DNA of 64,000 nucleotides, taken from Undaria pinnatifida (lineage: Eukaryota > Sar > Phaeophyceae > Laminariales > Alariaceae). The stretch lies in assembly GCA_012845835.1 (NCBI GenBank), contig JABAKD010000017.1, forward strand, positions 4,710,867 to 4,774,866, in the 5' to 3' direction. Numbering within the stretch: the stretch's first letter is position 1; the number at the start of each line of letters is the position of its first letter. The notes below the pieces were generated by a model, which made no database searches, was not told the DNA's origin, and saw only the letters and a list, made by a program, of their open reading frames with translations. Of this stretch, positions 37,355-62,390 are shown one piece after another. The translations under genes and the position numbers were made by a program.

Positions 37355-37454
37355 ATGACGCGTTTTCTGGCCTTAATTGCCGCTTTGGCGACGGTCGGTG
37401 TCACAGCCGGTGCTCCCTCCTATAAGGATGGTTGGGGATTGCTCAATCGCAAGG
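37355..37454 (+). CDS. Exon 1: signal peptide
   Basis: ATG at 37,355 opens a short basic start (MTR), a hydrophobic core ([13 protein letters not shown]) and a likely cleavage after TA-GA, then about 15 mature residues. The exon ends AAG G|GTGAGT, a strong donor in phase 1, which matches the phase of almost every module exon downstream. An in-frame ATG at 37,280 would add 25 polar residues and spoil the signal peptide, so I prefer 37,355. The link to the module exons is by phase and position only; a 4.5-kb repeat-filled gap lies between. Confidence 0.6.
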
Positions 37455-40400: not shown

Positions 40401-43400
40401 CTGATCGACAACAAGGCCAGGGTGGGCTGGGAACCTCCTTTTTCCCTGCGGGAATCCAGCCACTGGCACGAGTGACTCTATACGGCACTCACGAAGAGAC
40501 GATGTAGAGGTTTTTGATTGGACCCGCGCAGCTTGCCATTCCATGGCGGATTGACACATACAGCAAAATCTAACCAGCACAGAAGCCCAAAGCCGCAAGG
40601 CAACAAGGGGATCGTTCGCACGGGTGACCCCGAGACACCGACAAAATGTGTCTCAAGAGTGAGCCCCCTACCGCAGCCGCGCAGTGTAGATCGCATGCGT
40701 CTCACGTGTTCACGTTCGTTGGATCAAATCGCCATGATGTGTCGCCGTCAAGACGTTCAAACTGAAGGACGTTTGCTGATTGCAGCAGTTGTTCGAAATA
40801 CCTCAAATTGAAAAACAACTAATAACGTCCATCCTCACGTTGCCCTCCACACAGCAGCCGCGGCCGGCCCAGAGCAAGGCCTCCGCGGAAGACGCACGAC
40901 CGAGTCCATGAAGGTACGAAACTAACGCGCTTGTGGAACACGAGGGGTAGGTGGTACTGGCTAAAGCAGGTCTGGGTTAAGGGGCGCCTCTTCTGAGCCA
41001 CAACTCGACGAGCTTCCGATGCCAAATTAGGATTCGGTCTTTATTGTGACGTACAGGTCATCGAATTGGATTTTTTTTCGCGCTGCACTTCTATTCCTTA
41101 CCATCTTGTGTTTGGTGGCGAGTCAAATGTAGAGCGACACTATCGTTAGAAGAGCTCGCTTCGTGACTACCGTATCGAAATTCTGCTTGAAGGCTATCGG
41201 CACGGATTAGGCACGGGCCAGGTGGCCTCCCCTCTTCATGCTGAAACACCCATGAATGTTAACGCCGGGATACACGTTGAAAGAAACATTTGCTGAGTGT
41301 TGGCCATGTCACCTTCTGAAAGTCGTCGGCGAACGCAAACCTGAAGCGAGTGCCAATGTGTGTTTAGACCCGAGTGCATCCCATCAACAAAGCCGGCTTT
41401 GGCAAAAAAGCAATTCACCACGTGATCATGGAGATCTTCTGGCTACAAGCAGTACACATTACCCAACCGTGTTTAAGAACCTTTCGTTTCCACCGCCCTT
41501 AGGCTCAGAGAATGGCTATCGCAATAATCATCATTCAACGATATAAGCAAGTTACATTTGCAGTGCTATGATACGTGGGTCCACAAAAATATTTAGTTAC
41601 GACTAGTATCTTAAGTACTTTATACTTATACTGTCTTATTCAAAATATTTTCGGTTTGGGTTTCTTGATGGATCTGTACATAAACACTGAAACATAAAAA
41701 GTGAACCTTAACCAGTAACAATGGCATAGACTAAACAAATAGTGAAATATATTATCTAACCATAAGAATTGTCCGAAAAAATTGCATTAGTAATCACATA
41801 CTAACCAGTAACTATTATTGGTCTTAAGCAATTGAATTCATATATGTAAGTACTCCCGTTTTGATAAACAAACCATTCATGCTGGATCAGCTCAGTGAGA
41901 TGTCACAAGTGCTGACGTGGAGGATCATAATTCCTCTTGAGCACGCTCGCTGTCAAGGACACACCAACTGTCGTCAGTCAACAAGCACATTTTCGCTTAA
42001 TATTTCGTCGGCGAACAGGACCTGTACTGCGACTGCTTCAGCTGTGATGGCGGTTACACTCCGATCTCTAACGCGGCCGAGGTCAAGTGCGAAAACAACA
42101 AGTGCGACGAGGCCCAGTGCTGCGAACTTCTGTGCTCGTGCTACATGTGCCCGGACGATTACAGCAGCGTCGATGGCCATGACTCCATCGTCTGCAAGGA
42201 TTCCGGATGCACTACCGACCTGTGCTGCGAGAAAGACGGTGAGGGTCCACCGCACGATCGCCTTCGTTTAATCGTATCATTGATAGCACGGAAAAGTGCC
42301 TGAGCAGCGTTGACCGAACCCCTAAACGAGGAATGACCGATTAACGACGAATGACCGATCGGCAGTAAGCTCGCCATTGCCGCTGAGTGAGCAGATGCAC
42401 ATGTTTTCATCCTTCCAGGATGCATTTATCTCCAAATGTTTGTTCTGTACCCGGCGATGTAGCCATTCGTACAAGTACTCAACGCGTTCGTTTGAGTGAT
42501 GAACGTGAGCCCACACCAATTCTCAACAACGCTACCGCATTTTCGTTGCACCTACACTTTTGGTTTCAATCAACTATGGCTCGACCTTTGGAGTCCCCGT
42601 GCGTCTTCCCCTCATTTGCCAGAAAAAGATTGCTCGAGCTACACGTGCCCCGACAAATACAGCTTGATCGACGACCCCGAGAGTTGCATCTGCAAGGACT
42701 CCGGATGCACCAAAGATCTGTGCTGCGACAAGGACGGTGAGTTTATTTGGACCAATTAACTTTCATGTGAATATCCCTTAGTCACCAACGTTAAGTGGCG
42801 GTAGAGTTTTGCCCTGACAAATGCAGAGAGATGTCACCAACCGCGCTATGCTGAGTGTAGTGGTTATCGCGTGCCCGGTGCGGGTGTTAAAATAATGAAG
42901 GAATCTTTCAAAGTACATGAACTGCCTCTGTCGCTGGCACCATTTTGTAAAACATTGCTCCATGAGATTGCATCAACCAGCTCTGAAAGATGTACTCCTT
43001 CTCGTCGTTCGTACGGACCTACAGAGGAAGACTGCTCCAGCTACACTTGCCCCGACAACTATAGCTTGATCGACGACCCGGACAGCTGCATCTGCGAGGA
43101 GTCTGGATGCACCAAGGACCTGTGCTGTGACAAGGACGGTGAGGTGTACGCCGCAATAAAGTCTCGCTATGATATCTGCTAGAATTTATGCCGAGTCTAG
43201 CATCTACCAGGTTATGTGTAGGGTGGTGTCAATTGTACGCACAGCTCGTAGGCACCACGCCGTACCACTATTAATAACGTCCTGGACAGTCACGCACCCG
43301 GCACATAACGCTAACATAGAAGAGAAAACGTGTAACAAGTGGAGTTCGCGCCGTCTCTGACGCGGCTCAGGGGGAGCATAGTCTACTGGTGCGCGCTTGG

Positions 43401-46400
43401 ATATGCTGATTAATCGTGATCCTTCCCGTCCATGATCATGTATATGAATCGTGGGAGAAAACATGCTCGATATTCGAATGTTTAAAAAACCTGTAGTCTA
43501 GGTGGCAGCCTTTACATAAGTGTGTGTGAGCACTCTGGATGCACCAAAGGCCTGAGCTGCAACGAAAACGGTGACCCTCATAGGTTCGCCAAGTTTTCTG
43601 TCGGAAACGTCGTAAATGAACTTCATAAATCAGTTTTCTCTCATCAACTGTTGGTATACCAAGAAAAAAGATTTCATCAAATCGACCCTTTCTTAATATT
43701 TCTACAGGTAAGGAATAAATATCATCAACTGTAGCAATAACAAAAATGGCAAGAGTTTTATCTCTTAACCAAGTTACAAATGTAGCTACAATATAATAAT
43801 TTATATTTTTATTCTCATTAATCTCAGTAGAGACACGACTCGACACACAGTAAGTTCGGTCACCCCGGTGGCGTATCAGGTTATCCTCGAGCGTGGTATA
43901 GGTCAGTTTCGTGAGTTTGAGCCCAGCCGAGTGCATATTCGTATAAACTCGTTGGGACTTTTTCTTGTGCACAAATTGACTTGCGGAAAGCGCGAGAGCG
44001 TGAGTTAGCAACACTCGATGAAAGTCGACGAGCAGTGGGATTGCTGAACCCTATGCGCGATAAATACTTTTTTTCTTCCAAAACCGTCAGATTGATCCCC
44101 TTGAAAGGATTTATAGCTTACATGCACAAATTGCCCCCCCCCCCCCCCCCTCCAAACCCGCTCGCTTTTGATCAAAACTAAGCCCCCACGTCCTTCAAAA
44201 CTCCGCCCGCCCCCTCGCCGGTTATTCGACTTACAAGATTCACTTGATAAAAGGATACATTTCCCTCCACAGCTGTCAGATTTTGTCCCCCTCAGAAACG
44301 GGTTTTATAGTTTCCGCGCACAGACTGACTAACATCACCCTGTTGACCCTGATAGCTACACTGTAGTTGTAAGGGGAGTCGCCGACCTATATCCTTAATG
44401 AGGACACACAACTCGTAATACGCGCGATCGGAGTATCACTCACAGCTTGCAAAGATGAGTTTCGACGAAATCTTCGATCTCACAGCTGGATGGAGTGTAT
44501 TTTCATTATTTATAAAAATTGAAGGAACGAACCGGGGGGGAGAAAGGACGACACCTACCTATGACCACGGCTTGTCGAGAAGCTGGAAAGTAAAAGTGTG
44601 AGAAAAAAAAAAATATATATATATAAGTCTATATATTGAAATCACTAGGTACGTTCTTAGGTACGAAATTTAGGTTCGTTATATTTTCAACTCGATATGT
44701 TTCATTATACATCACGTATGCGTAATCTCTAGGAAAAAACACAAACCAAGCTATTGATGCGAGTTCGATTCTCGCTGCTCGCTAATAATAAGAAAAATTC
44801 GCCACATTTCTTTTTTTATGTAACTATATTTTATGAGATTTTAATAGGAATGAGAAATAATTTTGTTATACTTATAAACAAGAAAAGTATAATATATTTT
44901 TATAAAATGGAGAAAGTTTTAAAATGTCTGGTGGTTCAACAGGGGAACGTCCTTTTTCTGATATCATAACAAGTGTACGCTATTGGATTATTCATAGTAT
45001 TACAATAATAATGAAAAAACCCTTGGAAAGAGAAAAATATTATACCGTACATAAGCAAATATGAAGAAAAACAAAAAAAACAATATGAAATTAAAAAATC
45101 TATGGGTGGGCTTTATGTGAAATAGTCTTGTTGGAAATATAAATATCCACTACCCCATTCATTGCTATCTTGTTGACACAAATAATTCAATTTTAGTTGT
45201 TACAGAACCATACCACATAGATATTTCCTGAAGTAATAAAAGCTGCAAAGGAGACAGCTGCAACCTTACTAGATGGTACTGTTGTTTCAACACTACCGAT
45301 TCGTAGTGCACGATATAAACGTTAAGGAGGTCTCAAGAGGTCAGTGATCTTGGACCCACAGCTCTATCATTTAGTGCTCCTACACATTGGCATAGTATAT
45401 ACACATTAACAGGTAACCTCTCCGATATGAAGAGCTACACGATTGACGTTGACCCTGGTTAAAAGACACTCAGAGAATCATCAGACCAACGTCTACTGTG
45501 TTTGCTTACTTACCTAAGAATATTCATTCATCGCCACCGGTCATTTCGATGGTACCTCAGATGTGTACTGCTCTATAACGCTACCGCGTTTGCGTTGCAC
45601 CTACACTATTGGTTTCAATTAACTTTGGCTCGACCTTTGGAGTCCCCGTGCGTCTTCCCCTCATTTACCAGAAAAAGACTGCTCGAGCTACACGTGCCCC
45701 GACAACTACAGCTTGATTGACGACCCCGAGAGTTGCATCTGCAAGGACTCCGGATGCACCAAAGATCTGTGCTGCGACAAGGACGGTGAGTTTATTTGGA
45801 CCAATTAACTTTCATGCGAATTTTCCTTAGTCACCAACGTTAAGTGGCGGTAGAGTTTTGCCCTGACAAATAAATGCAGAGAGATGTCAATAACCGCGCT
45901 ATGCTGAGTGTAGTGGTTATCGCGTGCCCGGTACGGGTGTTAAAATAATGAAGGAATCTTTCAAAGTACATGAACTGCCTCTGTCCCTGGCACCATTTTG
46001 TATCAATTTTCCCATGAGATTGCATCAACCAACACTGAAAGATGTACTCTTCCTCGTCGTTCGTACGGATCTACAGAGAAAGATTGCTCGAGCTTCACTT
46101 GCCCCGACAACTATAGCTTGATTGACGACCCGGACAGCTGCATCTGCAAGGAGTCTGGATGCACCAAGGACCTGTGCTGTGACAAGGACGGTGAGGTGTA
46201 CGCCGCAATACAGTCTCGGTATGATATCTGCTAGAATTTATGCTGTGTCTAGTATCTACCAGGTTATGTGTAGGGTGGTGTCAATGGTACACACAGCTCG
46301 TAGGCACCACGCCGTACCACTATTAATAACGTGCTGGACAGTCACGCGCCCGGCACATCACGCTAACATAGAAGAGAAAACGAGTAACAAGTGGAATTCG

Positions 46401-49400
46401 CGCCGTCTCTGACGCTGCTCAGGTGAAGCATAGTCTATTGGTGCGCGCTTGGATAATATATTTAGCTGATTAATCGTGATCCTTGCGGTCCCTCTCTATG
46501 TATAAACTATGGATGGTGAGAGAAAACTTGCTCGAGATTCGAATGTTTCAAAAAACTTTTGATTAGTGGGCCGCCTTCACAGAAGCGTGTGTGACGACTC
46601 TGGGTGCACCAAAAGGCCTGTGCTGCAACGAGGACGTTGACCCGGTCAGCTATCTTGGACGCGGAGCTCTATTATTTTAGTGTTCCTGCATTGGTATACA
46701 CATCAACAGGTAACCTCTCCGATATGAAGAGCCACACGTTTTATGTTTGCCCGGGGTAATTGACACTCATAGAATCATCAGACCAACGTCTTCTCTGTTT
46801 GCTCACTTACCGAAGAATATTCATTCATCGCCACCGGTCGATGGTACCTCAGATGCACCAAGAAACTCTGCTGCGTAAAGGACGGTGAGACCGCGAAACA
46901 GTACATATTGTTCGGAATGCGTGGGGGAAGGAGATGTGTCGATGAATATTGCAACACATGAAGCTGTGAGGCATGGCAAGCATTAGACATGACGATACTC
47001 CGGGTGCCTCAAGCTTTTCCTATACGCGTGGTTCGACCGCCTTTGCCGCTTTACTGTCTGCGTAATCGTGTCGCCAAGGGTTATCTTGATCCGCTAACTC
47101 GAGGACCTGGACCATACATTGTATGAGGGTACACGAAATCGTGTGTTGAATCTCACACGAAAAACTATAGCGCTAGCGGTACACGCACGTGGACCTAACG
47201 AACATTTCACTTGTAACGCTGCTACGTATTATATTCGAATTGCGTATGTGGCCTGCTCGAGTTTTGCGTGCCCTGACATCTAGAGCAAGGTAGGCGGCAC
47301 TGCCGTGTGTGATGACCTGCGCTGCGGGAAGGACGTTGAGACCGCCATATATTATCGGTCAGTTTGTTAAACTTTTATTTCTCTCACTGGGTTTGTTTTT
47401 CAGACAGTGTAGGATATGTCGACCTGGATAGTACTGTAGATCCTAAGCCCAAAGGCGGACCGTACTGTCTTCCTTGCGAGCCATCCCACATTCAAGAAGC
47501 AGCGGAATTCCATTCGCGCTCCTGACACGATGAACTCAGAATCTCACCCGAAGAAACACTTCGAAGGCGTTCGTTCGCATAATAATGTGATGGACGTTAC
47601 TGTGAGCTAGTATTGAAACCATCGTTTATATAGCAGTACCATATTATCCGATACTTCCAAGCTTGAGAATCTCAACTGGTTACAAACGCTTGGCCCAAAC
47701 AATGCAACCTCTCTACCGTTCGATCATTCTTTCAAGTTATGTCGCGACGTCGTTCGTCCCGCGTTTAGCCTATAATTCGCCTTTCTCCTCTCCACGTGAT
47801 TGATGATTTCGATCGTCCCCCTCCCAGAGGAATACTGCTCGAGCTTCGAATGCCCCGACAACTACAGCTCGGTGGCAGACGCTTCCTCAACCGTGTGCAA
47901 GGACTCCGGTTGCACCAAGAAGCTCTGCTGCGAAAAGGACGGTTAGTCTGTTAGACTGCTAGAACCCAACAGCCTAAAGACAAACACGATCGTATTTGAA
48001 ACGCATGTGGTGCGCGATGTTCAATATCATCTCGCGTACATCCGTCCGCGCTCTCGGGCGCGTATCCTGTGCAATATGTTCAAAAATTAGGGAGGGGACG
48101 TAATCGTACTTGCAGTCTCACAAGAAAGAAACACCCACGTCTTGACCTAATGACGACGCGGTACGACACATACATTCTGCGTAATGCTCTGCTTGTAGCT
48201 CCCTGAATTTGATGTTTTGAATAGCTGCTCACTCTTCTTGGTGGCACATGCACGTGGATGTACGGAATATTTTACGCGGTAACGCCGTAAAGCGTTCTAT
48301 TTGAATTGCAGATGTGGTCTGCTCGAGTTTCACGTGCCCTGACAACTACAGCTCAGTGGACAACGCCGACAAGATCGTATGCGAGGACTCCGAGTGCACC
48401 AAGAAGCTCTGCTGCGAGAAAGACGGTGAGCCCGGCCATACGCATCGGCCCATTTTTCGTATGCTTGACTGGATTATTTTTGTCGAGTCGCGTAGGCAAT
48501 CTCGGCCAGGACGGTATCAAAAAGTACAGGCTCAAGATAGTGTCGTACGACTTTCATACCTTTTGACTGGGAAGATGTTGCTCAGCGCGAATTTAACCGC
48601 GAATGCGGATTTCTTGTGTCGACGTGATCGTTTGTCTCGATCGTCGCCCAGAGGAGTACTGTTCCAGCTTCGAATGCCCTGACAACTACAGCCCGGTGGA
48701 AGACGCTTCCTCAACCGTGTGCAAGGACTCCGGTTGCACCAAGAAGCTCTGCTGCGAAGAGGACGGTGAGGCTGCTAGAAACCAGCTGCTGCCAGAAAAG
48801 CGTGAACATATATTTTACACACGTGGTACGACGTTCAGCATCCCCTCGTATTTCGTGCTGAGGCCTCGGGGACATACTCGGTTCAATCATTGCAGACAAC
48901 AAGGGAGGCTAAACCACATTCTCAATCTCACTGACAAGAACACCGAAACGGTTCACATAGTAGCTATTGGGTACACAATCATAACTGTTGAGTGTTCTAC
49001 CCGTAACGTCACCCAATTAGGATTTTGAATGGTACCCATGACGAGTTATGTTCGGACTTCACGTGCCCCGACAAATACAGCCAAGTAGACGGCACAATGG
49101 TATGTGAGGACTGAGTAAAGCCACGGTGGGGAGGGGGGGGGGGGCGCATGGGCGTTTTCATACAGTGGCTCGGGCAAGTGATCGCCTTCTTCGTTTGCGG
49201 TCTTGACTTTTATGCTAAAATTTTACTTTTTCGGTAGGAATCCTTCAAGGAACGGTGAGATGGACTGCATAAACGCATGGCCAAAGGTCTTTCGGCAGTG
49301 ACGGACACAAGTCACTCCTGCGAGTGCTTCAAAACTGGGTTGTACAGGGGGGTATCCCCCCACCTGTCGTAACCTCGTACGGATTCCCGATGCACCAAAC

Positions 49401-52400
49401 ACGTTTCTGTGAAAGAGGGATGGTGATCATGTCAAGGCTTAAGAGCTTAGCTCTACACACGTACGGTTCGGTCAATATATAAATATATTTTATGATACTT
49501 GTGTCCCCTGACCTCCCATGTTTCGATTTACTCTTGCGTCTCCTCGACAGCGTGCGGGATGTCATAGTGTCGAATACATCAATACTGGCTATTCCGCTCG
49601 TTCATCTCGTTTCCAGGCGCCCGCTAACCCACATTTCCACGTTTTGGTTGTTATTCGATCGTTAGACGAGGTCTGCTCCAGCTTTGATTGCCCTGACAAC
49701 TACAGCTCAGTAGACGACGCCGACAAGATCGTCTGCGAAGACTCCGGGTGCACCAAAAAACTGTGCTGCGACAAGGACGGTGAGTCTGCCGTAGAGTAGA
49801 CGGTATTAATTTGACTACATGTGCACAAATGCCTAGTTTGGCATCTGGTGTCGCTCCGCACATGGACTGCGACACGGGAAGATTTTCACGACCGAAACAT
49901 GTCTGGTAGACTGCATTCTTGAACCGGACAACTGTCCAGTATCGTAACCTTTTGATCATAGTTTCACAACACGCGTTCGCTCTGCACCCCATCTACGCGG
50001 TTAATGATCGGATCATTGTGTGTTTCCTTTGTGTTAGACGAGGTCTGCTCCAGCTTCGACTGCCCAGAAAACTACAGCTCAGTGGACGACGCCGACAAGA
50101 TCGTCTGCGAGGACTCCGGTTGCACCAAGAAGCTCTGCTGCGACAAGGACGGTGAGGTTGCCGGAGGACAGAGGCTCATTTTCTGAATATATTTAGATCG
50201 ATGCTAAGGTAGTGTGTGTCTAACCGCACCACCGCTGTAACTGAGCACATGCACTGCGAACGGGGACGAGGTTGTCGACCAAAATATGTCTGGTTGGCGT
50301 CATTCGTGAACTAAGAAAAACGAATCAACAATGATATGGCATTTGTATTATAGTTTCGCAATACCGTTCATTTTTCACCCTTACTACGGGATCGGTTTTC
50401 CGTTTGCGTTTTCTTTTGTCGTTAGACGAGGTCTGCTCCAGCTTCGACTGCCCCGACAACTACAGCTCAGTGGACGGCGCCGACAAGATCGTCTGCGAAG
50501 ACTCCGGGTGCACCAAAAAACTGTGCTGCGAGAAAGACGGTGAGTCTGCCGTAGAGTAGACGGTATTTTTCAGACTACGTGTGCACAAATGCCTAGTTAT
50601 GCATCTTGTGTCGCTCCGCACATACATAGACGGCGATAGGGGAAGATTTTCTCGACCGAAAAATGTCTGGTTAATGGCATTCGTGAACTGGACAACTGTC
50701 GACTTCCATGACATTTTGATCATTGTTTCGCAACACGCGTTCGCTCTGCACACCATCTACGCGGTTAATTATCGGATCATTGTGTTTTCCTTTTTTGTTA
50801 GACGAGGTCTGCTCCAGCTTCGACTGCCCAGAAAACTACAGCTCAGTGGACGACGCCGACAAGATCGTCTGCGAGGACTCCGGGTGCACCAAGAAGCTCT
50901 GCTGCGACAAGGACGGTGAGGTTGCCGGAGGACAGAGGCTCATTTTCCGAATATATTTAGCTCGATGCTGAAGTAGTGTGTTTCTAACCGCACCACTGAT
51001 GTAACTGAGCACATGCACTGCAAATGGGGACGAGGTTCTCGACCAAAGTATGTCTGGTTGGCGTCATTCTTGAACTTAGAAAAATCAAATCAACAATGAT
51101 ATGACATTTATATTATGGTTTCGCAATACCGTTCATTTTTCACCCTGACTACGGGATCGGTTTTTCGTTTGCGTTTTCTTCTGTCGTTAGACGAGGTATG
51201 CTCCAGCTTTGACTGCCCCGACAACTACAGCTCAGTGGACGGCGCTGACAAGATCGTCTGCGAAGACTCCGGGTGCACCAAAAAACTGTGCTGCGACAAG
51301 GACGGTGAGTATGCCGTAGAGTAGACGTTGTTATTCAGACTACATGTGCACAAGTGCCTAGTTTTGCATCTGGTGTCGCTCCGCACATAGACTGCGAGAG
51401 GGGAAAAAATTCTCGACCGAAACATGTCTTGTTAACGGTATTCGTGAACTGGACAACTGTCCTCTTCCGTGACATTTTGATCATTGTTTCGCAACACGCG
51501 TTCGCTCTGCACACCATCTACGCGGTTAATGATCGGTTATTGGTGTTTTCCTTTTTGTTAGACGAGGTCTGCTCCAGCTTCGACTGCCCAGAAAACTACA
51601 GCTCAGTGGACGACGCCGACAAGATCGTCTGCGAGGACTCCGGGTGCACCAAGAAGCTCTGCTGCGACAAGGACCGTGAGGCTGCCGGAGGACAGAGGCT
51701 CATTTTCCGAATATATTTAGCTCGATGCTGAAGTAGTGTGTTTCTAACCGCACCACTGCTGCAACTGAGCACATGCACTGCAAATGGGGACGAGGTTGTC
51801 GACCAAAATATGTCTGGTTGGCGTCATTCTTGAACTTAGAAAAACAAATCAACAATGATATGACATTTGTATTATGGTTTCGCAATACCGTTCATTTTTC
51901 ACCCTGACTACGGGATTGGTAATTCTTCTGCGTTTTCTTTTGTTACTAGACGAGGTCTGCTCCAGTTTTGACTGCCCCGACAACTACAGCTCAGTGGACG
52001 GCGCCGACAAGATCGTCTGCGAAGATTCCGGGTGCACCAAGAAGCTCTGCTGCGAGAAAGACGGTGAGGCTGCCCCAGAGTAGTGGCTCGTTCGCTCACT
52101 ATATTTAGAGCGATGCTGGAGTTAATTAGTGTCCAGCGGTACTGTGGCTGTCACAGAGCACATACACTGCGAAAAGGAACCCATTTCTCGATCAAAATTC
52201 CTGGTTCACGGCGGTGTTGAACTAGAACCCTCCCCGATTCCGTGGCACGAGAATTGCACTTCTTCAACACCGCCAGTTCTGCACCGCATCATTGCGGATA
52301 TAGTCTAATCGGTTTTCGTTTTTATTTCGTCGTTAGACGAGGTCTGCTCCAGCTTCGACTGCCCTGATAACTACAGCCCAGTGGACGGCGCCGACAAGAT

Positions 52401-55400
52401 AGTCTGCGAAGACTCTGGGTGCACCAAGAAGCTCTGCTGCGACAAAGACGGTGAGGCTGCAGCAGAGTAGAGGCTCGTTTGCTTACTAAATTTAGAGCAA
52501 TTCTAACGATAATTAGAGTCAAGTGGTGGTGCTGCGGTCATAGGGCACGTACACTGCGAAAAGGGAATGATTTCTCGACCAAAATATGCCTGGTCCACGG
52601 CCGTCTTGAACTGGAAACTTCCGCGGTTCCGTGGCATGAAGATTTTAGTTCTTCAACACCGTTTGTTCTGCACCACATCTTCGCGGATATAATCGGTTTT
52701 CGTTTCCGTTTGTCGTTAGACGAGGTATGCTCCAGCTTCGACTGCCCTGACAACTACACCCTAGTGGACGACGCCGACAAGGTCGTCTGCGAGGACTCCG
52801 GGTGCACCAAGAATCTCTGCTGCGACAAGGACTGTGAGACTGCCGTATAGTAGAGACACATCTTGCCACTACTTGTACAGCGCAATGCTGGAGCTTAGTG
52901 CCTAGACGTACCGCTGCTGTCACACAGCACGTACACAGCGATATAGGAAACAGCTATCTACATATCGTCAGTGGACGGTGCGAACGACTGCGAAAGCGTC
53001 GGACGCATCTTAGATCGCCGCCGCGTACAGGACAGAGTAACCGTCAACACGTACGACAGGGACCCGCCGCTGTACACGTATGAGCACTGTTCGAACGAAA
53101 ACTTTAAAACGCACCTCCTTTGACGACCTGAACGGTTAATGGGGGTCTTGGCTGAACGGCGCTCGGTGCAACGTTACCAACAACCTTAACTGTGCTCGTG
53201 AATCTGTTTATTATATATATATGTGTGTATCCGGCGATGATTAATCTACCGTCGGCTTTCCTGACGCTTGTTACGCCAACCACAGGCCAGGTTTGCTCGA
53301 GTTTTGAATGCCCAGAAAACTACAGCGCCATAGACGATGCGTCCTCAACGGTGTGCAAGGACTCGGGATGTACCAAGGACCTTTGCTGCGACAAAGACGG
53401 TGCGCGACATTAATTTACGGCTTGGAGTGCAATTGAAGCGTTTTTCTTGGCATCTGCATACATAATTACACTGGCTAACATCACCCTGTTGACCCTGATA
53501 GCTACTCTGTAATTGCAAGGAGAGTCGACGACCTATATCCTGAATTAGGACACACAACCCGTAATACGCGCGATCGGAGTATCACACACAGCTTGCAAAG
53601 ACGAGTTTCGACAAAATATTCGATCTCACAGATGAACGGTATATTTAATTTTATGATAACTATAGAATGCGCACCAGGTCTTGATTGCGTTATCTTGGAC
53701 GCCTTCCAAGCCACTAGAACATCGCAGCTCAAGCGGCCAGGCAAGCTGGTGGCGTGGTTGAGTCTTACCTATCATATTTTTACAGTAGTACGATTCCTTT
53801 CTAGCTTCCATTTATGATTTACATCGGTCAGCCAACATTTTCTGGCTTGACTCTATTTACCAAACCCTATAGCGTGAAAGCCGACAAGTTAAAAGTGCCG
53901 TATTCGGAGAAGTGTCGCCGGGGTCCACAGTCCATATCATCGAACTCTGGACTCGTTCCACGGTAGCCCCAACGTTTATTTGATAGAATAGCCTGTTTGT
54001 TAAATAGATCCTAGCCGTACCTCTTGAACTGAAACACGGCGGCCCTTGAGATCCTAGCCGTATAGTATTTCGCGAAGAAAATCTACCAAGGTGCTCTTTT
54101 CATGGCATCCTTGCCCCGTGTTCAGCAGCCTTTATACGTTCGTTAAAGAAGGTGTCGGGTTACGGGGGGGTGCTATTGTTGATTCTTCACACATCTCCGA
54201 AGGAGTATGTTGTCCCCGAGTTTTCGTCGAGCCCCGAACGCCGCGTTCCTGCCACGCTGGAGAACGGTGTCGCAAGTACTAAGGTTTTTAACATTTGTCT
54301 CGTTTTTATAAGCCTTTTACGAGGCAAGGACGCTAATTTTTTTCGTGCTCCCAGCTAATACGCGCACTATTTGTCGTTGATATTTGCTTCTTTGTTGTGG
54401 AACCACAGAGAAACTCTGCTCGAGCTACGAGTGCCCCGACAACTACTCGCTCATCGAAGACTGCCTCGACACGGTGTGCAAGGACTCCGGGTGCACCAAG
54501 GACCTCTGCTGCGAGAAGGACGGTGAGCTGCCGTAAATAAAACCGCCTACATTGTGTTGCTCCCGTACAGAGTTGAATACTGCTACAGCATGCTACTGCA
54601 CAACTAAAACTCATCGTGTCGAGGAGGCGATAGGCGTACCGTAACGTTTTTGTGCGTGCGCCTTAACAGTACCTATACGACCCGGGCCACTGCATTTGAA
54701 ATAAGGATGGACTCCATAACTTCGGACTACGTTTTCGAGGCTGCGGTTGCGTTAGCCACCAGTCATCAGACTGCTTTGTGTGGAATGTACCGAGCGTATG
54801 TTCATCTCTTTCCATCATGTCTCGTCTTATCCGACGCAGTCGTCTTTCTTCGTCGACTTTCGAACGGCAGATGCTGAAAACGTAGTACAGCATGACATCC
54901 CTGGCGGCATGAGCCTCAGCTCTAGTTTCTCCGTTGTTGAGTTCGTTCGCTCCTAGCGAGGTTTCAATACGGCTGGAGCTTATTTATATCAAAGCGGCAC
55001 GTTAATGAAACAGACCACCCTATGAAAGATCCGTTTCACGAACACGCCACGACACACCTGGTTTGTATTTTGACATCGTGCCAAGCTCGTCCTACCGTGC
55101 CCCCTACTTGTCGTTGTTATTAAAATTATAATTCGCTCCAGTCTGTGATATCGAAGATTTTGCCAAACCGCCTTTTTTCAAGCTGTGTGTGATACTCCGG
55201 TGGCGCGTACTACTGGGTGTGTGTCCTCATTAAGGATATAGGTCGGTGACTCCCCTTGGGACTACAATGTAGCTTGTACCGGGGTCATCAGGGTGTTTTT
55301 AACAAATCTGTACGCGGACTCCCTAAACCCCGTTTCAGAGGGGGATAAAGTCTGACAGCTGTAGAAGAAGGCATCTGTTTATCAAGTGTATCCTGAAAGT

Positions 55401-58400: not shown

Positions 58401-61400
58401 ACAGGATATCACCTCATTATCTTTCGAGAGCCATCCATGCCGCTGTGCCCCCCCCCCCCCCCCCCCCCTCCCCGCCTCGAACGCCCCCTTCTTGCCCATC
58501 ACCCGCACCATCGCCTACACCTAGCACCACACGTATAACAAACCCCTCACCTGAAGCCCTTCCTCCCCCCCCCCCCCGCTCCCTCCCCCCCCCGCCCCCC
58601 CCCCGCCCCCACACCCCCCACCTCCCCCCCAACCCATCCCAACCCCACCCCCTCGAACACTCCACCCTCTCTTTACTCACTGATTGTACGACTTACCCCA
58701 GGATATACATGATAAACTTATGTATTATTCCAAAACCGTCGCATTTATCCCCTCAAAATAATGTATAGTTTCCAGGCACATATTGAGCTGCCCCACACGC
58801 CCCCCCCCCCGCCCCTAATAATATACTGGTGCCAAAACCGTCAGATATATCTCCTCGAAAGGATTTATAGCTTACATGCACAAATTGCCCCATTCCCCCC
58901 CCCCCCCCCCCCTCCAAACCCGCTCGCTTTTGATCAAAACCAGGCCCCCACGTCCTTCAAAATTCCGCCCCACCCCCCTCACCGGTTATTCGACTTACAA
59001 GATTCACTTGATAAAAGGATACATTTCCCTTCACAGCTGTCAGATTTTGTCCCCCTCAGAAACGGGTTTCATAGTTTCCGCGCACAGACTGACTAAACTC
59101 ATCCTCTTGACCCTGATAGCTACACTGTAGTTGTAAGGGGAGTCGCCGGCCTATATCCTTAATGAGGACACACAACTCGTAATGCGCGCGATCGGAGTAT
59201 CACACACAGCTTGCAAAGATGAGTTTCGACGAAATCTTCGATCTCACAGCTGGAGTGTATTTTCATTTTTTATAATATATAACCGGTTCAAACATCTGAT
59301 GCCCCACGGTGATATACAGTGTATCAAGGGGGCCTGAGATACAGTTGATCACGGGGGCCTATATCACCCCCTGATACAGGATATCACCTGCTGAAAGATC
59401 TGACCCCCCTTGAAATATATCACTCCCCCCAGATACAGTGGGACTATATTACCCCTCATACAGGATACCGCCTGTTGCGATATATCTGGTCACCCCGTGA
59501 AACATATCACTCCCCCCGTGATACAGTGAGGGGATTTATCACACCTGATACAGTATATCACCGGCTGCAGTATCTAAATCCCCGCCGCGCGTATTTGACG
59601 CAATGGCACCCCTGATGCAGTGTATCGGGGTGCGCGGAGGGTGTTGAGATTTCCCACCCACTTCCGCATATCTCCCCGCTCTTTGATAGAATACAGGGGG
59701 GCAATAATTAACCCTTGTTCGTAGGTAATCATCTGGATGTTTGAGGCGGAGGGGGGGGGTGATATATTTCATGGTGGGATCAGATATTTCAATGGGGGTT
59801 CATATATTTTAGATGGGAATCAGATTTTTTAGGGGGGGGATCAGATATTTTAGGAGGGGATCAGATATTTTGGGGGGAGGTTAGATATTTATGGGTGGAT
59901 GATATAATTCAGCGGGCTTCGCATATTGCCAAAGGGATCCCATCAATCAGTGGGGCCGATAAATCGCAGCATAACATCACCCTGTTGACGCTAACAGCTA
60001 CACTGTAGTTGCAAAAGGGAGTCCTCGACCTATATCCTTGATGAGGACACATAACCCGTAATACGCGCGATCGGAGTGTCACACACAGCTCGAAAAAGAC
60101 GAGTTTCGACAAAATCTTCGATCTCTTAGTTAGATGGAATGTATTCCTATTTTCATAATATGATAGCTACCTACCAGGTACGTCATAACTTGAATTACAA
60201 TGTGCTTAGTCGTCATCAGCAAAGGACGCATGATACGACAGAGAAGTAGCCCTTTTCGTCTGAAATGTTTTCCAAATGACGGGGCTATTAAGATCAATAA
60301 TAATCCTGTTGAAAGCAGAATATATAGTCTAAGTATATTGAGGATATGCTCTCGTCGTGTACCTAGGCCATGGGGTTTTTCATCCGGTATCGGAGCCGTA
60401 TTTATTTTCTGAAGCAGTGTTTGGGACAGGTGTTAAGTTCCAAAATCTTGGAGTCTTCCCCAAAAAAGTACTACCGCTATCGGACGCATGCCACGACATT
60501 GGTAGTGCTTTTCTTCTGAAACGTTTTTGCTCTGGCTGCGTAACGGGGCTCCTTAACCCAAAATTCGTCGGATATTCGCCATTTTGTCTCGCATGATGAT
60601 TTTCGGTGTGTGTACTTAGGTCTTGGAATTGTGCATTCGATAGAGTCGTTTATATTTTTCTCTACGCAAATCAGAGTTTGGAGGAGACCAAGGCTACGGT
60701 AAGGGGGGTACCCCCATTTTCACTGGTGTGTTTGAGTCACCGCACGAGTAGCTCTGTACCCTACGGATGAAGATGGTTTAGGAACTTGGTTTGCCGCAGC
60801 TTAGATCACCTTTGCATTGCGGATTGATTTCATCAATGTAAAACATAAAAAAAAACGTAACATTGCATAGGAGCAAAGGGGTTACTCGCGCAAGTGACCC
60901 CTGGCCACTGAAATAAAAGGCCCAAAAGGGGACCCCCCTACCGTAGCCTGGGTCAGGAAAGCTTTTAAGGCTCCCGAATTGAGGAACTTCAGAAAAATGT
61001 TGGTGCACCTCTGTCGTAGCCCGCGTCTTCGCAGTACGCGTCGAATGTTAACGCCACAATCCGAACATAATTGAGAAATATATATATATATGTATATCAA
61101 GGACTAGCGCAGGTCCCACGGACAATGACCACATCGTACTTCTGGTATCTCATGCGCTTGTCGACGGAGACGATATGCCGGGTCCCCTAAATAAAGAAGT
61201 CTATACCTGGAAATTTCAAGCCGTTTTCTGATTTGATTGCTTCTTGCCATGCCACTTCAGCCGTGCAATGCTGCGACTCCATCGAGTGCTCGGACGGGTA
61301 CACCCTGATCGACAATGCGTACAAGGTCGTTTGCGAGGATAACAAGTGTGACGAAGACCAGTGCTGCAAGGCGGTATGCTCCCACTACACGTGCCCCAAA

Positions 61401-62390
61401 AATTGCACCCCCAAGGAAGACTCCGGGAGCATCAAGTGCGGCAGTTCTGGTTGCAACACGGACACATGCTGCCACTACGGTGAGCCGTGCTTGATATGTC
61501 ATCTGCTTGTTCATGTGGACGGTGTTCAGACCTCGGTCGCTTAATGGAGAGAAGCCCGGTTGTTTCCGAGTGCGTTCCAGTGTGGTCGACTCGTGTATAG
61601 GGCTATTGCGCCAAGAGTTGACTACTTCTAGAGCGATATATGTCCGGTCGTTTCCGTGGTTTCGACAACAGGTGAAAATTAACGTTTCGCCTTGCCCGAT
61701 CACTCGTACAATTCCCGCGGCGATTATGGCCAGGCGGGGCTATGGCAATGGATTGCGCTCCATCTACACGTAAACAAGATCAGCAGCTGTCCTAGATTTT
61801 CGAAAAGTGTTAGTTTTATAGGCTACACCGTAAAAGCAACGGACTATTTGTTGATAGTTTGTGTCAACGGCACGGAGGTGAAATGGATAATAAAGGTGAC
61901 TCTCTCGGCGACGGCATGCGGCATCATGCTCGATCAACAACAGGCATACATCGTAGTATTAGGTCGTGTGTTACTCGTTTCGTGATTATGGCAGACACTA
62001 TACTCTCAATGATACACATGGAGCATTCGGCCATATCGTCTAAACGACAAAGGTCTTCCTTTCTGCATCGTGCTCGCGTTGTTGTCGCTCAGACTAGTGG
62101 ACATCTGAAGAATGACGGACGACACGTACACCAAAGGCTATGTGCTTGACACCGAGCACCTATCTGTGTAGCGGACGTACGAAGTCGGCATCAAAGAATA
62201 GCTAGACGAGGTCGTCACCAAAGAACAGCTAGACGAAGTCGTCACCAAAGAACAGCTAGACGAGCGCCGAGGGCAGCTCCATTGCGGAGTAACTCTGGGC
62301 GTTCAAAGGCATCATGTTACGGTTCTTCTCGAGGCGCAGCCGGCCATATTACGGATCGTTGTGTGGCCGGCGTGCCGATTTTTTGTTTAA
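37355..62390 (+). CDS. Multi-exon gene for a secreted cysteine-rich modular protein (whole locus)
   Basis: Proposed model: a signal-peptide exon (37,355), a double-module exon (42,019), eighteen single-module exons (42,623 to 54,409), a second double-module exon (61,261) and a possible last exon (62,206). All joints except the entry to 42,019 are phase 1. The product would be roughly 900 residues, acidic and disulphide-rich, outside the cell or at its surface. The module pattern is C-x4-C-x14-C-x4-C-x4-CC. I do not recognise the family. The locus may instead be two or more paralogous genes: the double-module exon at 61,261 resembles the one at 42,019, so a second gene could begin between 54.5 and 61.2 kb. 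Large introns hold transposons. Function is unknown; adhesion, matrix or recognition roles would be guesses. Confidence 0.55.
37985..39325 (+). repeat. Rep-D copies in the first intron
   Basis: It starts 'acaataccaggcaggtgata' and ends with the Rep-D terminus near 39,240-39,320 ('gatcggagtatcacacatat', 'cctacagctggagc'). An extra internal terminus at 38,520-38,610 shows that at least two copies are joined. C-tracts lie at 38,420-38,450, 38,645-38,665 and 38,955. Confidence 0.6.
39600..39775 (+). repeat. Rep-C fragment
   Basis: It has 'tgttgggtgagatgttcagc' and ends 'cacctatcgtgggatgatcc'. Confidence 0.4.
39780..39990 (+). repeat. Rep-A copy, partial
   Basis: It begins GGTAGAGGGGGTATCCCC and reaches GAATCACTCGCACGAGTGACCCC. 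The right end is missing. Confidence 0.45.
40405..40690 (+). mobile_element. Rep-A copy, full length but diverged
   Basis: Left end AGGCCAGGGTGGGCTGGGAA, then 'ggcacgagtgactctatacg', TTCGCACGGGTGACCCC and right end CCCCCTACCGCAGCCGCG. Its order is collinear with 17,226-17,494. Confidence 0.55.
40691..42018. other. Putative intron sequence, unassigned
   Basis: No repeat or exon recognised. The last 300 bases are AT-rich, and the stretch ends at the AG before the double-module exon. Confidence 0.3.
42019..42238 (+). CDS. Double-module exon
   Basis: It encodes two modules: a divergent first one ([13 protein letters not shown]...[12 protein letters not shown]) and a standard second one ([12 protein letters not shown]...[12 protein letters not shown]). 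The donor is GAC G|GTGAG. From the only nearby AG (42,017-42,018) the exon is 220 nt, whereas the matching exon at 61,261 is 219 nt and phase 1 at both ends. So joining exon 1 directly would be one base out of frame. Either a further small exon lies in between, a different acceptor is used, or there is a one-base change or error here. Confidence 0.7.
42623..42736 (+). CDS. Module exon 1 (extra-cysteine class)
   Basis: Acceptor TTTGCCAG|AA, donor GAC G|GTGAG. Module residues start [20 protein letters not shown]. It has a seventh cysteine at module residue 22 ([10 protein letters not shown]), which places two cysteines one residue apart. Near-identical partner at 45,672. Confidence 0.85.
43025..43138 (+). 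CDS. Module exon 2 (extra-cysteine class)
   Basis: Acceptor CCTACAG|AG, donor GAC G|GTGAG. Contains [10 protein letters not shown]. The partner at 46,077 differs at a few positions (for example EESGC against KESGC), and the flanking introns are also nearly identical. Confidence 0.85.
43510..43577 (+). pseudogene. Degenerate module remnant
   Basis: Only the second half of a module is left ([17 protein letters not shown]), with one of the paired cysteines replaced by Ser. No acceptor AG is evident just before it. The remnant ends at the left junction of the plastid insertion. Confidence 0.65.
43583..43835 (-). pseudogene. ycf46: Plastid ycf46 fragment
   Basis: On the minus strand about 84 codons read like the AAA ATPase Ycf46: TFVTWL..KT-like start ([12 protein letters not shown]), FVIATVDDI, then [11 protein letters not shown] and VHLRRFR. 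Ycf46 is usually about 500 residues, so this is a small internal fragment and not a working gene. Ycf46 is known from plastids of red algae and their secondary descendants. Confidence 0.8.
43856..44625 (+). mobile_element. tRNA-derived SINE, copy 3, split by Rep-D
   Basis: Head CGGTCACCCCGGTGGCGTAT (A-box region), a B-box-like 'gtgagtttgagccc', body to 44,064, then Rep-D, then the rest of the body from 44,512 ('ataaaaattgaagg') to an A-rich tail at about 44,602-44,625. It lies inside the plastid insertion and so is younger than it. Confidence 0.75.
44065..44511 (+). mobile_element. Rep-D copy inserted in the SINE
   Basis: The five bases ATAAA occur at the left (44,060-44,064) and again at the right (44,512-44,516), whereas the other two SINE copies have this sequence once. 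This is a clean target-site duplication. The element contains a C-tract, the 'ccgtcagattgatcccctt' block and the standard right terminus. It is very similar to 58,830-59,275. Confidence 0.75.
44738..44782 (+). pseudogene. 3' end of a plastid tRNA-Gly-like gene
   Basis: The sequence reads CCAAGCTATTGATGCGAG, TTCGATT, CTCGC and TGCTCGCT. That is the 3' anticodon-stem side, the T arm and the acceptor strand, most like plastid trnG(UCC). The 5' half is not intact, so no working tRNA is expected. Confidence 0.55.
44924..45007 (+). pseudogene. psbE: Plastid psbE, first 28 codons
   Basis: The translation [20 protein letters not shown] plus WIIHSITI matches the N-terminus of cytochrome b559 alpha subunit, including the heme-ligand region around WxxHS. 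The expected PSLF continuation is absent, so the fragment ends at a rearrangement. The full protein is about 84 residues. Confidence 0.85.
45008..45338. other. AT-rich remainder of the plastid insertion
   Basis: Composition and position suggest more plastid DNA. One plus-strand frame ends [10 protein letters not shown] and then stop at about 45,321, like the C-terminus of a plastid ORF, but I cannot name it. Confidence 0.4.
45672..45785 (+). CDS. Module exon 3 (extra-cysteine class)
   Basis: Partner of the exon at 42,623; acceptor TTACCAG|AA, donor GAC G|GTGAG. Reads [20 protein letters not shown] with SCICKDSGC. The substitution DKY to DNY relative to the partner fits a recent duplication. 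Confidence 0.85.
46077..46190 (+). CDS. Module exon 4 (extra-cysteine class)
   Basis: Partner of the exon at 43,025; acceptor TCTACAG|AG, donor GAC G|GTGAG. Reads [20 protein letters not shown] with SCICKESGC. Confidence 0.85.
46580..46638 (+). pseudogene. Degenerate module remnant
   Basis: Partner of the remnant at 43,510: 'gtgtgtgacgactctgggtg' continues into sequence for a CC pair, but an extra base shifts the frame, and the donor reads GACG|TTGA instead of GTGA. Confidence 0.6.
46848..46886 (+). pseudogene. Last third of a module exon
   Basis: It reads [11 protein letters not shown] with a normal G|GTGAG donor, but the first two cysteines are absent. An AG at 46,851-46,852 could act as acceptor for a mini-exon; I judge it a remnant. 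Confidence 0.55.
47248..47334 (+). pseudogene. Degenerate module exon
   Basis: It shows [10 protein letters not shown] followed by a stop codon, then a shortened second half ending CGKDV. The donor G|TTGAG is weak. This is a dead copy. Confidence 0.65.
47480..47690. repeat. Rep-C fragment in an intron
   Basis: It contains 'aatctcacccgaagaaacac' and 'cttcgaaggcgttcgttcgc', Rep-C hallmarks in reverse order. Confidence 0.4.
47828..47941 (+). CDS. Module exon 5
   Basis: Acceptor CTCCCAG|AG. Donor G|GTTAGT, which differs from the usual GTGAG. Module [20 protein letters not shown] with [15 protein letters not shown]. Six cysteines. Belongs to a DASSTV class with 48,652 and 53,286. Confidence 0.85.
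48312..48425 (+). CDS. Module exon 6
   Basis: Acceptor AATTGCAG|AT, donor G|GTGAG. Module [20 protein letters not shown] with [15 protein letters not shown]: the usual Gly before the fourth cysteine is Glu. Confidence 0.85.
48652..48765 (+). CDS. Module exon 7
   Basis: Acceptor TCGCCCAG|AG, donor G|GTGAG. Module [20 protein letters not shown] with [18 protein letters not shown]. Closest to the exon at 47,828. Confidence 0.85.
49049..49425 (+). pseudogene. Module exon split by a Rep-A insertion
   Basis: The first part (49,049-49,110) reads [22 protein letters not shown]. The last part (from 49,381) resumes with DSRCTKH and degrades, with the CC pair lost. Between them lies Rep-A. A dead copy that still shows the order of events. 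Confidence 0.7.
49115..49378 (-). mobile_element. Rep-A copy inserted in a module exon
   Basis: Left end AGCCACGGTGGGGAGGGGGG, inner 'aagtcactcctgcgagtgct', right end GGGGGGTATCCCCCCACCTG then 'tcgtaacctcg'. Length and order fit Rep-A. The left flank GGACT and right flank GATTC may be a decayed target duplication. Confidence 0.6.
49666..49779 (+). CDS. Module exon 8, array type a
   Basis: Acceptor GATCGTTAG|AC, donor G|GTGAGTCTGCC. Module [20 protein letters not shown] with [15 protein letters not shown]. First exon of the higher-order array; its following intron is like those after 50,426 and 51,191. Confidence 0.9.
50038..50151 (+). CDS. Module exon 9, array type b
   Basis: Acceptor TGTGTTAG|AC, donor G|GTGAGGTTGCC. 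Module has [13 protein letters not shown], the Glu for Asp change marking type b. The following intron matches those after 50,802 and 51,562. Confidence 0.9.
50426..50539 (+). CDS. Module exon 10, array type a
   Basis: Acceptor GTCGTTAG|AC, donor G|GTGAGTCTGCC. Has SVDGADKIV and ends CCEKD; 760 bp after the exon at 49,666. Confidence 0.9.
50802..50915 (+). CDS. Module exon 11, array type b
   Basis: Acceptor TTTTGTTAG|AC, donor G|GTGAGGTTGCC. Protein sequence identical to 50,038 as far as I can read; 764 bp downstream of it. Confidence 0.9.
51191..51304 (+). CDS. Module exon 12, array type a
   Basis: Acceptor TGTCGTTAG|AC, donor [21 protein letters not shown] class, ending CCDKD; 765 bp after 50,426. 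Confidence 0.9.
51562..51675 (+). CDS. Module exon 13, array type b
   Basis: Acceptor TTTTGTTAG|AC. The exon ends GAC C|GTGAG, so the shared codon at the next joint starts with C instead of G (CAC, His, if joined to 51,950). 760 bp after 50,802. Confidence 0.9.
51950..52063 (+). CDS. Module exon 14, array type a
   Basis: Acceptor TTACTAG|AC, donor [21 protein letters not shown], ends CCEKD. Its downstream intron resembles the type-b introns, so it looks like a crossover between the two types. Confidence 0.9.
52337..52450 (+). CDS. Module exon 15
   Basis: Acceptor GTCGTTAG|AC, donor G|GTGAGGCTGC. Module [20 protein letters not shown] with [15 protein letters not shown]. Paired with 52,720 by similar introns. 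Confidence 0.9.
52720..52833 (+). CDS. Module exon 16
   Basis: Acceptor TGTCGTTAG|AC. The exon ends GAC T|GTGAG, so the joint codon starts with T. Module has [24 protein letters not shown] before LCC. Confidence 0.9.
52965..53010 (+). pseudogene. Short module remnant
   Basis: 'gtcagtggacggtgcgaacg' followed by 'actgcgaaagcg' resembles the middle of a module exon (SVDGAD...VCED). Too short and altered to be used as a module. Confidence 0.4.
53286..53399 (+). CDS. Module exon 17
   Basis: Acceptor AACCACAG|GC. Donor G|GTGCGC is weaker than the others; if read through, a stop follows after four codons, so this exon could also serve as an alternative last exon. Module [20 protein letters not shown] with [14 protein letters not shown]. 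The joint codon is GGC after most exons but TGC (Cys) after 52,720. Confidence 0.8.
53460..53640 (+). repeat. Rep-D end, solo
   Basis: From 'ggctaacatcaccctgttga' to 'ttcgatctcacagatgaacg'. About 180 bp of the Rep-D right part without a body. Confidence 0.6.
53641..54408. other. Putative intron, unassigned
   Basis: No module or repeat recognised. The stretch ends in a pyrimidine-rich tract before the acceptor at 54,408. Confidence 0.35.
54409..54522 (+). CDS. Module exon 18
   Basis: Acceptor AACCACAG|AG, donor G|GTGAG. Module [20 protein letters not shown] with [18 protein letters not shown]. It has a seventh cysteine at residue 19, a different place from the 42-46 kb class. Reading past the donor meets a stop after three codons, so it could be an alternative end. 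Confidence 0.85.
54523..55135. other. Unassigned stretch
   Basis: No module or repeat recognised. Confidence 0.3.
57060..57835 (+). repeat. Satellite of palindromic units in Rep-E
   Basis: Units of the type CTGATACAGTGTATCAGG, each a near-perfect palindrome, are spaced by G- or C-runs. They are organised in a higher-order period: the block starting 'ctgaaatatc' at 57,081 recurs at 57,351 and about 57,623 (270 and 272 bp). A shorter, inverted part lies at 59,310-59,560. Confidence 0.75.
57820..59278 (+). mobile_element. Inner Rep-D, inserted in Rep-E satellite
   Basis: It interrupts the satellite between 'gtgatacaatata' and 'aatatataaccggttc'. It carries several Rep-D body units with long C-tracts (57,900-57,925, 58,295-58,330, 58,447-58,470, 58,560-58,620) and ends in the standard terminus at 59,160-59,270. 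AATATA at both borders may be the target duplication. Confidence 0.6.
60154..60344. other. Unassigned spacer
   Basis: Short stretch with nothing recognised. Confidence 0.3.
60345..60660 (-). repeat. Rep-B copy
   Basis: It has 'gtgtacctaggccatggggt', 'cggggctccttaacccaaaa' and 'cgtcggatattcgcca' in reverse order. A second 'gtgtacttaggtcttgga' at 60,612 suggests two overlapping copies. Confidence 0.5.
60685..60956 (+). mobile_element. Rep-A copy, near full length
   Basis: Left end GACCAAGGCTACGGTAAGGG, inner GTTACTCGCGCAAGTGACCCC, right end CCTACCGTAGCCTGGGTC. Among the copies here it is closest to 17,226-17,494. Confidence 0.7.
61261..61479 (+). CDS. Second double-module exon
   Basis: It follows acceptor CCACTTCAG|CC and ends TAC G|GTGAG; 219 nt, phase 1 at both ends. 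First module [20 protein letters not shown] with [14 protein letters not shown]; second module [20 protein letters not shown] with [14 protein letters not shown]. Extra cysteines: one next to the first cysteine of module one, and one in CPKNC of module two. It pairs with the exon at 42,019, sharing NKCDExQCC. Confidence 0.8.
61480..62205. other. Putative intron
   Basis: Begins GTGAGCC. No repeat or module recognised. Confidence 0.35.
62181..62264 (+). repeat. 27-bp tandem repeat, three units
   Basis: Units 'gaagtcgtcaccaaagaaca' plus 'gctagac' start at 62,181, 62,208 and 62,235. In frame they encode EVVTKEQLD. Confidence 0.75.
62206..62390 (+). CDS. Possible terminal exon
   Basis: If the AG at 62,204-62,205 (AGCTAG|AC) is the acceptor, the phase-1 frame stays open for 60 codons to TAA at 62,388. 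It starts with repeated EVVTKEQLD and continues [13 protein letters not shown] to a mildly hydrophobic end. The bases AC GAG GTC at its start copy the start of the module exons (AC GAG GTC TGC). The phase fits, but the choice of acceptor is uncertain and no second support exists. Confidence 0.35.

What the first reader, a model, noticed from the sequence alone, without database searches (positions are those of the whole stretch)
42019..54522. An array of exactly 114-nt, phase 1-1 exons, each one cysteine-rich module
Seen directly: eighteen exons of identical length (114 nt, 38 codons), each with an AG acceptor, a G|GT donor and the pattern C-x4-C-x14-C-x4-C-x4-CC. Every exon is symmetric in phase, so any subset can be joined without a frame change. 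Together with a signal-peptide exon this predicts a secreted modular protein whose length and module order can vary by exon gain, loss or skipping. Single-repeat exons with strong exon turnover have been described in brown algae for LRR-ROCO and NB-ARC-TPR candidate immune receptors; this would be a different module used in the same way. I do not recognise the module in any known family.
Basis: partly seen in the sequence, partly recalled or inferred. Interest (0 to 1): 0.92.

Follow-up and report, generated by a model that had tools for sequence, protein, structure and literature searches.

The report
Kelp secreted cysteine-module exon array
A kelp gene is built from eighteen small exons of equal length that each encode one small cysteine-rich building block of a secreted protein, and it belongs to a large, still-changing and apparently undescribed gene family that more likely makes cell-surface or cell-wall proteins than fast-changing immune receptors.

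Summary
In detail: 18 of 18 exons at 42623-54522 are 114 nt, phase 1-1, bounded by AG and GT, with C-x4-C-x14-C-x4-C-x4-CC. The gene is probably larger: signal-peptide exon (37355-37454), propeptide exon (40858-40913), two-module exon (42019-42238), the 18 single-module exons and a second two-module exon (61261-61479); joined they read 882 residues without a stop. The source is very probably Undaria pinnatifida. The array belongs to a large family: one exon finds 149 genome matches (a lower bound), 122 on the same 10-Mb contig, including another array of 29. Relatives occur in other brown algae; one is fused to a cupin, one to CBM1. No Pfam, NCBIfam or PDB match to the module. Introns show that two-exon units of about 760 bp were duplicated; five decayed exons show loss. 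The exons are under purifying selection (dN/dS 0.08-0.21), with dN>dS at 1 of 26 non-cysteine sites, unlike the reported LRR exons of ROCO genes. Best reading: a secreted multivalent wall or surface protein whose length is set by exon duplication. Immune variation is not supported but not excluded. Splicing is untested.

The parts
37355..37454 (+). exon 1: start codon and signal peptide ([33 protein letters not shown] + 1 nt), phase-1 donor GTGAGT
   Evidence: similar signal exons with phase-1 donors stand before paralogues (L049 at 1069; L040-L042). Signal peptide judged by hydrophobicity, not by a dedicated program; assignment to this gene is inferred from position and phase
40858..40913 (+). 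exon 2: propeptide exon, phase 1 to phase 0, [18 protein letters not shown], donor GTACGA (an alternative acceptor gives 40855)
   Evidence: matches the exon AAGGEMENGLRGGRILK of Undaria gene model P0001 in sequence, phases and donor
42019..42238 (+). exon 3: two modules (A-type then B-type), phase-0 acceptor, phase-1 donor
   Evidence: AlphaFold2 model of its 73 residues, mean pLDDT 89.1
42623..54522 (+). array of 18 single-module exons of 114 nt, phase 1-1 (starts 42623, 43025, 45672, 46077, 47828, 48312, 48652, 49666, 50038, 50426, 50802, 51191, 51562, 51950, 52337, 52720, 53286, 54409)
   Evidence: single-module model mean pLDDT 86.3
49661..52854 (+). tandem block of nine exon+intron units, period 387 bp; the first six introns alternate between two types, i.e. 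three copies of a two-exon unit of about 760 bp, the next two introns are a third type
   Evidence: Tandem Repeats Finder; intron identities
42522..46643 (+). another tandem duplication: 42522-43577 and 45571-46643 (two exons plus one decayed exon each), 90.6% identical
43522..49112 (+). five decayed exon remnants: 43522-43563, 46529-46636, 46852-46884, 47246-47286, 49041-49112
   Evidence: blastn of intact exons against the masked window, E<=0.01
61261..61479 (+). two-module exon of 219 nt, phase 1-1, donor GTGAGC; probably a later exon of the same gene
   Evidence: joined to the other exons it stays in frame; assignment inferred

Best explanation
The stretch is the body of one kelp gene (37355 to at least 61479, + strand) for a secreted protein of about 880 or more residues: a signal peptide, a short propeptide and 22 copies of a 32-residue module with six or seven cysteines. 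Each 114-nt phase 1-1 exon is one self-contained module, so unequal crossing-over between introns can add or remove whole modules without changing the frame; the sequence shows that such duplication and loss has happened (the crossing-over itself is inferred). Selection keeps the module sequence while copy number changes, which fits a repetitive, multivalent or length-setting extracellular protein, most likely of the cell wall or cell surface, in which many similar binding or spacer units act together (inferred). The gene is one of a large brown algal family in which such modules are gained and lost.
For: Shown: exon anatomy; signal-like exon and homologous propeptide exon; the same exon order and phases in Undaria gene model P0001; purifying selection, dN/dS 0.079 within the tandem block and 0.207 over 18 exons; for the unit pairs printed, exons are 89.5-99.1% identical where the introns behind them are 60-95% (pairs with introns under 60% were not printed); two-exon unit duplication and five decayed exons; 149 exon matches in the genome with 122 on the same contig. 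A single exon is predicted as a compact unit (pLDDT 86.3, pTM 0.49). Inferred function: two homologues from unnamed species carry a cupin domain (P0023, E 3.8e-29) or a CBM_1 cellulose-binding domain (P0025, E 1.7e-10); 0 of 19 linkers between modules of the 42019-54522 stretch is dibasic (KK does occur inside modules), so release of separate peptides at linkers is unlikely; pI 4.05 and 17 N-glycosylation sequons in 757 residues.
Against: No transcript evidence for this gene. The terminal exon was not found. The link of exons 37355, 40858 and 61261 to the array rests on position, phase and homology. Wall or surface location is inferred from domain partners of two relatives, not from this gene. 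Charge differs strongly among paralogues (acidic here; His/Arg-rich modules in L035-L036, Lys-rich in L049-L050; read), which would also suit diversified binding. The PDB searches gave no fold that would suggest a biochemical function.
Confidence: 0.6

Rival explanations
1. Variable immune recognition: single-module exons are shuffled and alternatively spliced to give many binding specificities, as proposed for brown algal LRR-ROCO genes.
For: Phase-symmetric single-module exons, copy-number turnover and decayed exons; large clustered family with a second array whose five copies read are nearly identical; module charge differs between paralogous loci. Anatomy resembles ROCO LRR exons (PMC11378527 section 11).
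Against: dN/dS 0.08-0.21; 1 of 26 non-cysteine sites with dN>dS over 109 modules, against four selected sites in the LRR exon study; modules of the tandem block encode nearly the same protein sequence (pN 0.03), so shuffling them would change length more than specificity. No receptor domain was seen, but the terminal exon is unknown.
Confidence: 0.15
2. Secreted multi-headed inhibitor or defence protein (for example against herbivore or microbial enzymes), each module one inhibitory head, as in tandem Kazal-, antistasin- or Bowman-Birk-type proteins (recalled comparison).
For: Small cysteine-rich modules in tandem, secretion signal, clustered expansion; site 18, between the second and third cysteine, is the one site with dN>dS.
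Against: No match of the module to a Pfam family and no PDB fold match; strong purifying selection inside the array.
Confidence: 0.15
3. Decaying repeat array: most exons are pseudo-exons of a dead gene.
For: Five decayed remnants, two exons with a changed last base, terminal exon not found.
Against: 18 of 18 exons open with AG and GT intact, the joined frame open over 882 residues, and dN/dS well below 1 between copies.
Confidence: 0.07

Closest known systems
Single-LRR exons of brown algal ROCO genes (PMC11378527, section 11 read)
   Same: Brown algae; one repeat per exon, identical exon lengths, one intron phase, exon shuffling
   Different: 72-bp phase-2 LRR exons of ROCO GTPases with four sites under predicted positive selection; here 114-nt phase 1-1 exons of a secreted cysteine module under purifying selection
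Animal extracellular modules encoded by phase 1-1 exons (EGF, Kazal, CCP; recalled, not from a call)
   Same: Module = exon, symmetric phase 1-1, secreted multi-module proteins, growth by exon duplication
   Different: Module matches none of them over a Pfam cut-off or in PDB; found in a brown alga
EsV-1-7 cysteine-rich family of brown algae (recalled; the name occurs in papers listed, which were not read for it)
   Same: Large brown algal family of tandem small cysteine motifs
   Different: The recalled motif contains a conserved histidine that this module lacks; no Pfam match at E<=10, but I did not check that the library holds an EsV-1-7 profile
Unnamed brown algal proteins P0001, P0002, P0006, P0007, P0010, P0011
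   Same: Same C-x4-C-...-CC modules, mostly as A+B pairs, signal-like N-terminus, short stretch before the first module
   Different: Far fewer modules; where exon data exist (P0001) they sit in double or triple exons. No 18-exon single-module array seen among them

Membership tests
Brown algal A/B cysteine-module family (unnamed; P0001, P0002, P0006 and relatives) | C-x4-C-x~14-C-x4-C-x4-CC modules with a 35-38 residue period | tested here: met
   phmmer P0001 E 2.0e-31, P0002 E 1.2e-29
Brown algal A/B cysteine-module family (unnamed; P0001, P0002, P0006 and relatives) | signal exon (phase 1), propeptide exon (1-0), first module exon (0-1) | tested here: met
   checked against one gene model, P0001
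Variable immune receptor built by exon shuffling (LRR-ROCO type) | one repeat per phase-symmetric exon with turnover | tested here: met
Variable immune receptor built by exon shuffling (LRR-ROCO type) | diversifying selection at several sites of the repeat | tested here: not met
   (pairwise and parsimony counts, not PAML)
Variable immune receptor built by exon shuffling (LRR-ROCO type) | receptor or signalling domain | tested here: inconclusive
   Pfam scans covered modules and relatives; terminal exon not found
Variable immune receptor built by exon shuffling (LRR-ROCO type) | alternative splicing of repeat exons | not testable with these tools
   no reads available
EsV-1-7 repeat family | match to its profile | tested here: inconclusive
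   0 Pfam families at E<=10 for four module sequences; presence of an EsV-1-7 profile in the library not checked
EGF / TNFR-type / CCP modules | profile or fold match | tested here: not met

The most novel reading that the evidence does not exclude
Kelps have evolved, independently of animals, a general system of phase 1-1 single-module exons for building extracellular proteins, and use frequent unequal crossing-over (and perhaps exon skipping) in megabase clusters to make individuals differ in module number, giving surface proteins of variable length or avidity that matter in wall mechanics, gamete or microbe recognition.
Probability: 0.25. Interest if true: 0.8.

Novelty: new variant of a known kind. 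Interest (0 to 1): 0.52.

Why it matters
It points to an extracellular domain family that I found described nowhere (searches named in Tried and rejected), present in at least five brown algal genera, expanded to more than a hundred exon matches in one kelp, and built by the one-module-one-exon, phase 1-1 logic known from animal extracellular proteins (recalled). If confirmed it gives a way to study how a third complex multicellular lineage builds matrix or surface proteins, and a probably fast-changing locus in a farmed seaweed.

Tried and rejected
Immune-receptor reading: weakened by dN/dS and site counts. Isolated one-gene oddity: rejected by genome searches. Gene ends after 54522 and a second gene starts with the 61261 exon: judged less likely, because that exon has a phase-1 acceptor like internal exons of paralogues. 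Viral origin: two scans of IMG/VR gave no relative by tblastn (1 pattern match; 155 pattern matches); two unnamed BFVD proteins (V5LSY5, G4YD78) match the two-module model with Foldseek E 0.009 and 0.016, short of E 0.001 but with probability 1.00 and 0.99, so viral carriers of the fold are possible; not followed because no tool here gives their sequences. Prokaryotic genomes were not searched for the module. Sex-linked cluster: 0 of 9 HMG-box matches lie on contig C23, a weak test. Terminal exon ending in -GP as in P0001 and P0002: no convincing candidate. P0004 as query (dinoflagellate-like by its TTTP linkers; recalled resemblance) found one further protein, P0027. Literature searches for the module or such an array gave nothing on point (search listings only; two returned no paper); two searches were for other questions. 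Papers: PMC11378527 abstract, outline and section 11 read; PMC12592211, PMC8307928 and PMC7058681 passages only; Zambounis 2012 not held, known only from its title.

Limits of the counts: the site analysis used modules picked by a pattern that fixes the spacing and the six cysteines, so those columns are invariant by construction; it took 116 modules (109 unique) from the window and L035-L050, that is 16 of the 50 loci then held, where a looser pattern had found 125 (leaving out one poly-C artefact in L031), so about nine modules with other spacing were dropped. Genome match counts are lower bounds: about 150 candidates were scored per search. The contig tally was counted by hand from its list. 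In one search only unit pairs with introns over 60% identical were printed. The module tree was read without its support values.
Full report
WHAT IS THERE. The window contains 22 matches to the DNA form of C-x4-C-x14-C-x4-C-x4-CC, all on the + strand, against none in 100 dinucleotide-preserving shuffles. Eighteen are single-module exons of exactly 114 nt between 42623 and 54522. In 18 of 18 an AG stands before and a GT after the exon, and each starts and ends after codon position 1. The last exon base is G in 16 of 18, C in exon 51562 and T in exon 52720. The spliced frame of 42019-54522 is 757 residues without a stop. The other four matches form two double-module exons, 42019-42238 (phase-0 acceptor) and 61261-61479 (219 nt, phase 1-1).

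THE WHOLE GENE. Upstream, a signal-peptide-like exon with a phase-1 donor lies at 37355-37454, and a 56-nt exon at 40858-40913, phase 1 to 0, matches in sequence, phases and donor the second exon of Undaria gene model P0001. P0001 maps without mismatch, apart from its first 12 and last 3 residues, which were not placed by that script, to contig C56 of the same genome, exon by exon. Together with the genome size (511,146,479 bases in 68 contigs; published Undaria scaffold length 511,280,173 in 114 scaffolds, PMC7058681 passage) this makes the source very probably Undaria pinnatifida. Because the 61261 exon has a phase-1 acceptor, as internal exons of paralogues do, it is probably a later exon of the same gene. 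All proposed exons joined read 882 residues with 22 modules and no stop. The terminal exon was not found.

WHY 114. Double exons with a 35-residue period are 219 nt, as at 61261; taking out one period of 105 nt leaves 114 nt, so a single-module exon is what deletion or recombination within a double exon would leave (arithmetic; inference). The length is not universal: in a second array on the same contig (3,684,487-3,703,554; 29 matches, five copies read) the exons read as 123 nt, and one of the five copies read has lost its GT donor.

HOW IT GREW. Nine exons at 49666-52833 lie in a 387-bp tandem repeat. The introns behind the first six alternate between two types: 86-95% alike within a type and 61-65% between them, so three copies of a two-exon unit of about 760 bp; the next two introns (behind 51950 and 52337) are a third type, 80.5% alike. 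Another duplication, 42522-43577 against 45571-46643, is 90.6% identical. Five decayed exons lie among the intact ones. Between copies the exons change mainly at silent sites: dN/dS 0.079 for the nine, 0.207 for all 18. Thus module number turns over while the module itself is conserved.

THE FAMILY. Searching the genome with the two-module exon gave 151 matches and with one single-module exon 149, of which 122 lie on contig C23, 14 on C52, 12 on C56 and 1 on C27; both are lower bounds. Paralogous exons hold one, two or three modules. In other organisms relatives were found in Ectocarpus, Sphacelaria, Scytosiphon and Pylaiella and in unnamed assemblies. P0003 and P0005, of unnamed origin, group in the module tree with exon 54409 and with the tandem-block exons respectively, which would mean that module subtypes of this array are older than the split from that source; branch supports were not looked at, and the smallest clade holding the array's modules (14 distinct ones) also takes in the B module of exon 42019 and three modules of L049-L050. 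One relative carries a cupin (P0023) and one a CBM_1 domain (P0025), both of unnamed species.

IMMUNE READING. [quoted passage not shown] Here a parsimony count over 109 unique modules shows dN>dS at one site (18) of 26 non-cysteine sites. So the anatomy is alike and the selection is not. I give the immune-variation reading 0.15.

MOST LIKELY ROLE. Secretion signal, repeated conserved cysteine-rich modules, 197 acidic against 72 basic residues and pI 4.05 over 757 residues, relatives joined to cupin and cellulose-binding domains, and copy-number change under purifying selection fit a multivalent or length-setting protein of the wall or cell surface. This step is inference; no expression, location or binding data exist here.

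Noticed in passing
G000:C23:3684487-3703554 (L051 covers 3686251-3689450): Another single-module exon array (29 matches, spacing mostly 627/682 bp, 123-nt exons); the five copies read encode almost the same module and one has lost its GT donor.
   Followed up: partly
window modules at 42028, 42133, 42631, 43033, 45680, 46085, 54417, 61377: Eight of 22 modules carry a seventh cysteine, and the joint of exons 52720 and 53286 would encode an extra Cys; odd cysteines could form bonds between modules or molecules.
   Followed up: partly
BFVD V5LSY5 and G4YD78: Two unnamed viral proteins match the two-module model with Foldseek E 0.009 and 0.016, probability 1.00 and 0.99.
   Followed up: no
window 43436-45100 (minus-strand ORF 43436-44014 and AT-rich stretch around 44600-45300): Short stretches read like pieces of plastid genes inside an intron of the array (recalled resemblance to ycf46 and psbE; no Pfam hit for the 43436-44014 ORF), so possibly plastid DNA inserted in the nucleus.
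   Followed up: partly
window 23520-25602: Copia-type retrotransposon remains (RVT_2, best E 1.8e-29; 'Copia-type' is recalled).
   Followed up: no
window 21059-21530, 38860-39340, 44070-44520, 53470-53667, 55115-55566, 58780-59280: A dispersed repeat of up to about 500 bp, 69-93% alike between copies, also inside introns of the array; possibly a non-autonomous transposable element.
   Followed up: no
C23:4879598-4885532 and C23:4134694-4164301: Recent duplicates in the family: matches repeat exactly 4,260 bp apart in the first region, and near-identical multi-exon blocks lie in L039, L040 and L042.
   Followed up: no
P0001, P0002, P0006, P0007, P0010, P0011 between signal-like stretch and first module: An R-x-L motif stands before the first module in these six relatives (read; recalled likeness to the RXL processing site of diatom wall proteins); not present in the window gene's propeptide exon.
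   Followed up: no
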